From NCBI RefSeq assembly GCF_008974285.1, contig NZ_BKZV01000007.1, positions 1 to 64,000 on the forward strand: a DNA stretch of 64,000 nt, in the 5' to 3' direction. Origin of the DNA: Thermogemmatispora aurantia. Lineage in GTDB: Bacteria; Chloroflexota; Ktedonobacteria; Ktedonobacterales; Ktedonobacteraceae. Shown here one piece after another: positions 36,702 to 37,431 of this stretch (within the stretch, counting starts at the first letter, position 1; each line of letters opens with the position of its first letter). The notes under the pieces are model-generated. The model ran no database searches. It saw only the letters and a list, made by a program, of their open reading frames with translations, and had not been told where the DNA came from. Made by a program: the position numbers and the translations under genes.

Positions 36702-36839
36702 GAACGCGCGAGTTGAGAGAGCTTTCATGCCCTTATCGCGACAGCGCTGCAAGGTCGCGCTGACGGGATTCGAACCCGCTTCCACCCGAAGGGTGGATAT
36801 ACCGAAGAGTATGTACGCTCGCTCGGTCAGAGCGCGTTC
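36702..36839 (-). ncRNA. Y-RNA-like unit A, with tRNA-like domain
   Basis: Terminal helix GAACGCGC/GCGCGTTC (36702-36709 with 36832-36839). Reading the minus strand: CUGACCGA, the shared GAGCGUACAUAC, a cUUCGg-capped hairpin (UCCACCC...GGGUGGA), then GCGGGUUCGAAUCCCGU, a perfect tRNA T-arm, then CAGCGC/GCGCUG closing the acceptor-like stem. The D-arm part (GAUAAGGGCAUGAAAGC) is poorly preserved. The 3' side repeats the CUCUCUCAACUC motif of its neighbours. Unit nearest to the Ro60 start. Confidence 0.8.
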
Positions 36840-36867
36840 AGGTGAAATAGCGCTTACTGCGTGACAG

Positions 36868-36997
36868 TTCCAGCGGAAAGAGAGCGGCAGGGCCAGAGCC
36901 TCTGAGGTAAGCGAGGCTTGGATTCGAGGGGCCGCTCCTACCTACCGCCAGGCAGGTGCGCCCGGCTCAGGCGGGCTGGTGTGGTGCACAGGTCAGA
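36868..36997 (-). ncRNA. Degenerate or diverged Y-RNA-like unit
   Basis: Between units A and B. It keeps CUGACC at its 5' side, GCCGCUCUCU at its 3' side as in unit B, and CUCGAAUCC, one base off the T-loop of its neighbours. TTCCAG 36868-36873 can pair with CTGGAA 36998-37003, that is, with the end of unit B. No independent long terminal helix is visible, so it may be a decayed copy. Confidence 0.4.
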
Positions 36998-37111
36998 CTG
37001 GAACGCGCGAGTCGAGAGAGCGGCTCTCCCACTGAGCTACAGCCTGAGAAGGCTGACGGGATTCGAACCCGCGACCGGTGTGTATGCTCGCCCGGTCAGA
37101 GCGCGTTCCAG
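36998..37111 (-). ncRNA. Y-RNA-like unit B, permuted tRNA mimic
   Basis: An 11-bp perfect terminal helix (CTGGAACGCGC 36998-37008 with 37101-37111). In RNA order: UCUGACCGG, shared GAGCAUACACAC, then T-arm GCGGG-UUCGAAU-CCCGU (37072-37056), acceptor strand CAGCC, a 6-base loop, acceptor strand GGCUG, UA (tRNA positions 8-9), D-arm GCUC-AGUGGGA-GAGC (37037-37023), and the shared 3' motif CUCUCUCGACUC. The T-arm precedes the D-arm and the acceptor is closed by a loop, so it is a circularly permuted tRNA elbow, not a tRNA gene. Bacterial YrlA-type Y RNAs are known to mimic tRNA. Confidence 0.9.
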
Positions 37112-37175
37112 CCTGGAAATAGCACAAAGCATGGCAACTGGCAGCGCCTCAGCAAGTACGTGAGAGTAGCTGAGC

Positions 37176-37277
37176 CTGAGACGCGCAAGTCCAAAGAGCT
37201 TCCAAAACAGTGGTAGGCAGCTCCACAGGCTGACCTATGCGATGTTTGTACGCTCTTTGCGTCAGGGCGCGTCTCAG
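37176..37277 (-). ncRNA. Y-RNA-like unit C, no tRNA domain
   Basis: An 11-bp perfect terminal helix CTGAGACGCGC (37176-37186) with GCGCGTCTCAG (37267-37277). RNA carries CCUGACGCA, an inner helix AAAGAGC/GCUCUUU, the shared GAGCGUACAAAC and GGACUU on the 3' side. In place of the T-arm it has a short hairpin CAGC-CUGUGGA-GCUG. A reduced member of the set. Confidence 0.85.
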
Positions 37278-37320
37278 AACAAATACTGTCCAAATCCAAA
37301 ACTGTTCTGAGGGGATCAGG

Positions 37321-37431
37321 CTGAGACGCACGAGTCGGAGGGGCAGGTCGTGTTCCTACCCGCGAGGGTAGTGGGAGCGGGTAGACCGCCAGCGCTGGTA
37401 TGTATGCCCCATCGGTGAGAGTGCGTCTCAG
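37321..37431 (-). ncRNA. Y-RNA-like unit D, no tRNA domain
   Basis: An 11-bp perfect terminal helix CTGAGACGCAC (37321-37331) with GTGCGTCTCAG (37421-37431); compared with unit C one G-C pair is replaced by A-T on both sides, a compensatory change. Inner helix GGGGCA/UGCCCC, shared GGGGCAUACAUAC and CUCCGACUC. The distal part is a long hairpin CUACCCGC/GCGGGUAG closed by GGUC/GACC. Confidence 0.85.

What the first reader, a model, noticed from the sequence alone, without database searches (positions are those of the whole stretch)
36702..37431. Compensatory base changes support four tandem RNAs with one architecture
Terminal helices: A GAACGCGC, B CTGGAACGCGC, C CTGAGACGCGC, D CTGAGACGCAC, each with its exact complement. 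Differences between units change both strands. All four share, just inside the helix, YCUSACSS on the 5' side and YSRACUY on the 3' side, then GAGCRUACAnAC. The 3' motif is close to the GNCGAAN(0-1)CG Ro-binding consensus of bacterial Y RNAs as I recall it, with C for the second A.
Basis: seen in the sequence. Interest (0 to 1): 0.85.

Follow-up and report, generated by a model that had tools for sequence, protein, structure and literature searches.

The report
Tandem Y-like RNAs beside divergent Ro60
A heat-loving bacterium (Thermogemmatispora) carries four small structured RNAs in a row next to a distant relative of the Ro60 protein; all share the same presumed protein-binding stem but carry different cargo, in several relatives a circularly permuted tRNA look-alike, which extends the known Ro60/Y RNA machinery to swappable sets of up to six RNAs linked to a ubiquitin-like gene cassette.

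Summary
On the minus strand, 36698-37432, lie four RNA-like units (A-D) with the terminal helices and shared motifs described. In 40 units from 12 genomes (Ktedonobacteria, one Chloroflexaceae MAG, one Chlorobiota MAG) 15 of 17 pairs show changes on both sides; covariation score 0.62 against 0.24 shuffled and at most 0.22 slid. The units lie between a ubiquitin-like gene and a divergent Ro60 homologue, followed by an unknown protein and an E1/ThiF gene. Rfam's YrlA hits unit B (42 bits, E 1e-7, below the curated 69). Unit B and units in relatives carry a circularly permuted tRNA mimic, as YrlA does; 19 effectors read as tRNAs once un-permuted, none as written. Effectors differ: window C and D are not tRNA-like, while some relatives keep different anticodon arms (Asp, Lys, Ile, Trp). 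So these are Y-RNA-like partners of a Ro60-like protein: a known kind in a new variant (arrays of two to six units, one Ro stem with exchangeable effectors, Ubl/E1 cassette). The recalled GNCGAAN(0-1)CG consensus is not met. Transcription, Ro binding and the role of the Ubl genes are inferred, not shown.

The parts
36698..36843 (-). Unit A: Y-like RNA; 8-bp terminal helix, Ro-type internal loop, T-arm and acceptor-like hairpin, no D-arm
   Evidence: ortholog L031_A keeps the acceptor-like hairpin with a compensatory change (CAGCGC/GCGCTG to CGGCGC/GCGCCG)
36997..37112 (-). Unit B: Y-like RNA with circularly permuted tRNA module (T-arm, closed acceptor stem, D-arm)
   Evidence: Rfam YrlA 42 bits E 1.1e-7; permuted alignment to tRNAs scores 59 against 32 shuffled
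37175..37278 (-). Unit C: Y-like RNA, 11-bp H1 and 8-bp H2, short effector without tRNA parts
37320..37432 (-). Unit D: Y-like RNA, 11-bp H1, effector a CUACCCGC/GCGGGUAG hairpin, not clearly tRNA-like
36648..36702 (-). Terminator-like hairpin with U-rich tail after unit A, conserved in the genus
35015..36496 (-). Divergent Ro60-like protein (helical-repeat region plus vWA domain with DKSGS metal site), 493 aa
   Evidence: hhalign to Pfam-TROVE proteins prob 99.3, E 7e-21 over 411 columns; PDB TROVE chains E 2.4e-6; not recognised by Pfam TROVE
37514..37735 (-). Small ubiquitin-like (beta-grasp) protein, 73 aa, C-terminal YG
   Evidence: conserved in 14 loci; model pLDDT 81, best matches PB1/ubiquitin-like folds, Foldseek E 0.08, Z 5-6
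33625..34725 (-). Conserved protein of unknown fold, invariant Cys337
   Evidence: no Pfam/NCBIfam hit; model too weak to search
32939..33628 (-). E1-like ThiF family adenylyltransferase
   Evidence: Pfam ThiF E 1.2e-25; PADLOC E1-E2 models E 2e-19

Best explanation
The four units are Y-RNA-like small RNAs, the RNA partners of the divergent Ro60-like protein encoded directly downstream. The shared stem (terminal helix H1, internal loop YCYNAC/RACUY, helix H2 ending GAGC/GCUC) is the Ro-binding handle; the varying part beyond it is the effector module that decides what the Ro ring is tethered to or what it imitates. In unit B and in many relatives the effector is a circularly permuted tRNA (acceptor ends closed by a loop, the chain opened on the anticodon side where the Ro stem is attached), as in YrlA. 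Tandem copies with one handle and different effectors would give one Ro protein several alternative adaptors. Shown by sequence: the structure, its conservation, the permuted tRNA modules, the diversity of effectors, the cassette. Inferred: transcription, Ro binding, tethering of a nuclease such as PNPase, decoying of tRNA enzymes, and any link to Ubl conjugation.
For: Covariation in both helices; unpaired motifs kept in 40-41 of 44 units; units lie upstream of the Ro-like gene in 13 genomes, two to five per genome, and six in G019 behind the Ubl gene; Ro homology; Rfam YrlA hits of 31-45 bits in eight loci besides the window; ARAGORN finds tRNAs in 19 un-permuted effectors, 0 in the linear and 0 in shuffled sequences; 65/71 identity of one permuted effector to a tRNA-Met; RtcB in the same cassette in a Chlorobiota MAG, as in the rsr-yrlBA-rtcBA operon (PMC7790460); YrlA itself superposes on tRNA with a circular permutation (PMC11472068).
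Against: No Rfam family reaches its curated cut-off; the Ro-like protein is not recognised by Pfam TROVE; window units C and D have no tRNA module; no expression data; no sigma-70-type promoter was found nearby; G001 (L029) has the Ubl and Ro genes but no units were found next to them.
Confidence: 0.88

Rival explanations
1. The units are remnants of real tRNA genes or a decayed tRNA array: tRNA pieces caught in a repeat-rich intergenic region, without function.
For: Strong tRNA likeness of several effectors, one 65/71 identical to tRNA-Met.
Against: tRNA parts lie in permuted order, which decay does not give; ARAGORN finds no tRNA in the window; both helices outside the tRNA part are kept by compensatory changes; window C and D have no tRNA parts yet share the arms.
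Confidence: 0.03
2. The units are a cis-regulatory leader of the Ro gene (attenuator or protein-binding operator array), not separate RNAs.
For: They lie between the Ubl and Ro genes in one orientation; a terminator-like hairpin follows unit A; a Ro-site-like hairpin sits at the Ro ribosome-binding site in two relatives.
Against: In L020 the units precede the Ubl gene, in L022 an rtcB gene separates them from Ro, and K. rubrisoli has a unit far from the Ro locus; many effectors are tRNA-like.
Confidence: 0.06
3. The array is a set of decoys or sensors for tRNA-cleaving or tRNA-repair enzymes: different permuted tRNAs, some with intact anticodon loops, are held by Ro and bind such enzymes. (This is compatible with the best explanation; it concerns what the effectors do.)
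For: Different anticodon arms kept in relatives (Asp GTC, Lys TTT, Ile GAT, Trp CCA); RtcB in one cassette; a competitive-inhibitor role was suggested for YrlA (PMC7790460).
Against: No toxin or nuclease was found linked; window units do not keep an anticodon arm; two window units are not tRNA-like.
Confidence: 0.2

Closest known systems
YrlA, Y RNA-like A (Rfam RF02553) of Salmonella and other bacteria
   Same: Closed by pairing of 5' and 3' ends, internal loop with an ACUUG-type 3' strand, second helix, then a circularly permuted tRNA module with T-arm, closed acceptor stem and D-arm; encoded beside a Ro60 homologue and, in one relative here, beside rtcB.
   Different: Below the curated Rfam score (best 45 against 69 bits); a different conserved 5' strand (YCYNAC ... 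GAGCNUACANAC); arrays of 2-6; effectors vary, some keep an anticodon arm, some have no tRNA part.
Ro60 / Rsr (Pfam TROVE PF05731, vWA_Ro60 PF25045)
   Same: Same order of a helical-repeat region and a vWA domain with a DxSxS metal site; profile homology over 411 columns to TROVE proteins of the same phylum.
   Different: Not recognised by Pfam TROVE; vWA_Ro60 only at 16 bits (cut-off 27.7).
Bacterial ubiquitin-like conjugation cassettes (Ubl plus E1/ThiF)
   Same: Small beta-grasp protein ending in glycine, and an E1-like ThiF protein in one gene row.
   Different: No E2, JAB or PRTRC protein recognised; the third protein is of unknown fold; the cassette is built around a Ro-like protein and its RNAs.

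Membership tests
YrlA (Rfam RF02553) | Score at or above the curated gathering cut-off (69 bits) | tested here: not met
   Best 44.7 bits (L004), 42.0 in the window, E 1e-7
Bacterial Y RNA (functional kind) | Encoded next to a Ro60 homologue | tested here: met
Bacterial Y RNA (functional kind) | Long stem formed by the 5' and 3' ends | tested here: met
   H1 of 8-16 bp with covariation
Bacterial Y RNA (functional kind) | At least one Y RNA per species with a tRNA-like module | tested here: met
   Unit B (T, acceptor, D arms), unit A partly; relatives
   2 of 44 units, at unrelated places
Bacterial Y RNA (functional kind) | Transcribed and bound by Ro60 | not testable with these tools
   No expression or binding data
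Ro60 / TROVE | Match to Pfam TROVE at its cut-off | tested here: not met
Ro60 / TROVE | Homology over the helical-repeat and vWA regions, metal-site motif DxSxS | tested here: met
   Searches (E 7e-21, 411 columns; E 2.4e-6), D304/S306/S308 invariant
Ubiquitin-like modifier | Beta-grasp fold | tested here: inconclusive
   Model pLDDT 81; top matches are ubiquitin-like and PB1 folds, but Foldseek E is only 0.08 and Z 5-6
Ubiquitin-like modifier | C-terminal glycine and an E1-like enzyme in the same gene row | tested here: met
   G73 invariant; ThiF E 1.2e-25 and 12 loci
Ubiquitin-like modifier | Conjugated to target proteins | not testable with these tools
   No biochemical data

The most novel reading that the evidence does not exclude
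A modular Ro ring system in which one divergent Ro60 protein uses an array of up to six Y-like RNAs with a common handle and exchangeable, circularly permuted mimics of different tRNAs (some with intact anticodon arms) to sense or decoy tRNA-directed enzymes, coupled to ubiquitin-like protein modification by the co-encoded Ubl and E1, and in some relatives self-limiting through a Ro-site hairpin at the Ro ribosome-binding site.
Probability: 0.2. Interest if true: 0.85.

Novelty: new variant of a known kind. Interest (0 to 1): 0.6.

Why it matters
Bacterial Y RNAs are known as one or two RNAs per Ro60 (for example yrlB and yrlA in Salmonella, PMC7790460), and the use of their tRNA-like module is unclear. 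Here a single locus holds a whole set that keeps one Ro handle by compensatory change while the effectors are swapped for different tRNA mimics, and the protein partner is so diverged that Pfam misses it. That gives a natural experiment on which part binds Ro and what the tRNA mimics are for, and it ties a Ro-like protein to a bacterial ubiquitin-like cassette, a link for which no paper was found in the library searched here.

Tried and rejected
Rfam at gathering threshold finds nothing in the array. Structure prediction of the third protein was too weak to search (pLDDT 53), so an E2-like role is only a guess. A first Ubl alignment used a wrong reading frame for the window and was replaced. 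PADLOC finds no defence model for the Ro-like, Ubl or third protein. Key papers (Chen 2014, Wang 2018, the Sim and Wolin reviews, Burroughs and Aravind 2016) are not held, so statements about them rest on citing papers or on recall; whether any of them already lists Ktedonobacteria could not be checked. Naming a parental tRNA for every effector was given up: only an intact anticodon arm, or the 65/71 tRNA-Met match, allows it. One match of the genome pattern (G008) looks like chance. A control treating the internal loop as a helix was malformed and not repeated.

Full report
1. What is there. The stretch lies in a Thermogemmatispora-like genome (Ktedonobacteria; close relative L021/L034 is T. 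carboxidivorans PM5). Read on the minus strand it holds four units, D (37320-37432), C (37175-37278), B (36997-37112) and A (36698-36843), then a conserved terminator-like hairpin (36648-36702) and a 493-aa gene (35015-36496). Each unit folds better than all 200 of its shuffles (z -3.5 to -4.8).

2. More than chance. Homologous loci were found in other Thermogemmatispora, in several Ktedonobacteria genera, in one Chloroflexaceae MAG and in one Chlorobiota MAG. 44 units could be put in one register: H1, YCYNAC, five bases, G-AGC-NUACANAC, effector, GCUC, three to four bases, RACUY, H1'. RACUY stands in 41 of 44 and NUACANAC in 40 of 44. In 40 gap-free units, 15 of 17 pairs change on both sides; 91.9% of cells pair against 72.9% shuffled and at most 52.8% slid; covariation 0.620 against 0.243 and at most 0.224. 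Swapping the 3' strands between units drops fully paired inner helices from 33 to 6.7 of 41. The sequences are related, so this is not a formal phylogenetic test, but orthologous sets within the genus also show paired changes. A motif pattern searched in 400 genomes of the phylum gave 17 matches, 16 of them true units, and none for the reversed control.

3. The partner protein. Pfam sees at most a weak vWA_Ro60 match (E 0.009), and Pfam TROVE does not find it. A profile of 13 family members matches solved TROVE-domain proteins (E 2.4e-6 over profile positions 20-394) and, by profile-profile comparison, proteins of the same phylum that do match Pfam TROVE: prob 99.3, E 7e-21, 411 columns, with the DxSxS metal site kept. 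It is a divergent Ro60-like protein.

4. The effectors. Rfam YrlA hits unit B at 42 bits (E 1.1e-7) and units in eight further loci at 31-45 bits, all below the curated 69. Unit B has T-arm, closed acceptor stem and D-arm in permuted order. Doubling each effector head to tail, which undoes a circular permutation, lets ARAGORN see a tRNA in 19 units; it sees none in the linear and none in the shuffled sequences. Alignment to tRNAs of these genomes gives the same picture, up to 65 of 71 identical to tRNA-Met in L024_4. The permutation point varies: on the anticodon side in most, within the D-loop in L024_4 (read from the sequence). Some relatives keep a whole anticodon arm with a normal seven-base loop: Asp(GTC), Lys(TTT), Ile(GAT), Trp(CCA), and a GCT loop in K. 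rubrisoli. Window units C and D, and some units elsewhere, have no tRNA parts. That YrlA superposes on tRNA by circular permutation is known (PMC11472068), so the permutation as such is not new.

5. The cassette. Upstream of the units lies a 73-aa protein with a ubiquitin-like beta-grasp model and an invariant C-terminal glycine (the fold matches are modest). Downstream of Ro come a protein of unknown fold with an invariant cysteine and an E1-like ThiF protein. The Ubl was found in 14 loci plus G019, the third protein and the E1 in 12 each, including the Chlorobiota MAG, where RtcB sits inside the row. G019 has six units behind its Ubl gene.

6. Mechanism. Best reading: exchangeable Y-like adaptors for one Ro ring. 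The H1/loop/H2 part, kept in every unit, is the Ro handle; the effector differs and would set the partner or the substrate, as tethering to PNPase is described for bacterial Y RNAs (PMC7790460, PMC8394870). A decoy or sensor role against tRNA-directed enzymes is a serious alternative for the tRNA-like effectors. Both are inferred.

7. A further lead. In L025 and L033 the leader of the Ro gene holds RACUC, a 12- or 9-bp hairpin and YCUNAC directly before the ribosome-binding site, that is, the Ro site in inverse order (background 0.004 per 160 bases, much of it from neighbouring units). This could let Ro limit its own synthesis. The window itself keeps only something like the 5' half (GTACTCTATGAAAGAGG), so it is not claimed here.

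8. Verdict. The finding is real. It is a new variant of a known kind: Y-like RNAs of a divergent Ro60, in arrays with swapped effectors. It is not filed under Rfam YrlA because the curated score is not met, and the recalled Ro consensus is absent.

Noticed in passing
L025:10730-10798 and L033, about 75 bases before the Ro start: Hairpin RACUC-stem-loop-stem-YCUNAC overlapping the Ro ribosome-binding site: the Ro handle in inverse order, possibly a feedback operator.
   Followed up: partly
window:33625-34725: Conserved protein of unknown family between Ro and E1 with a C-terminal SSGICL...FDL motif and an invariant cysteine; possible partner in Ubl transfer.
   Followed up: partly
L160 from about 8408 downwards (minus strand), K. 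rubrisoli: A single Y-like unit with a 16-bp H1 and permuted tRNA effector more than 2 Mb from the Ro locus.
   Followed up: no
L159 (G019:C576): Six tandem units behind a Ubl gene; the contig ends just inside the Ro gene.
   Followed up: partly
L025:10819-14478: Two Ro-like genes in tandem with a further vWA-like reading frame between them.
   Followed up: no
L028 and L030: Ro-like gene split over frames in G025, and only an 80-residue remnant in G042, where the Y units and Ubl are gone: the system is lost at times.
   Followed up: no
window:56326-56431 (minus): Fluoride riboswitch, 40 bits, above the Rfam cut-off.
   Followed up: no
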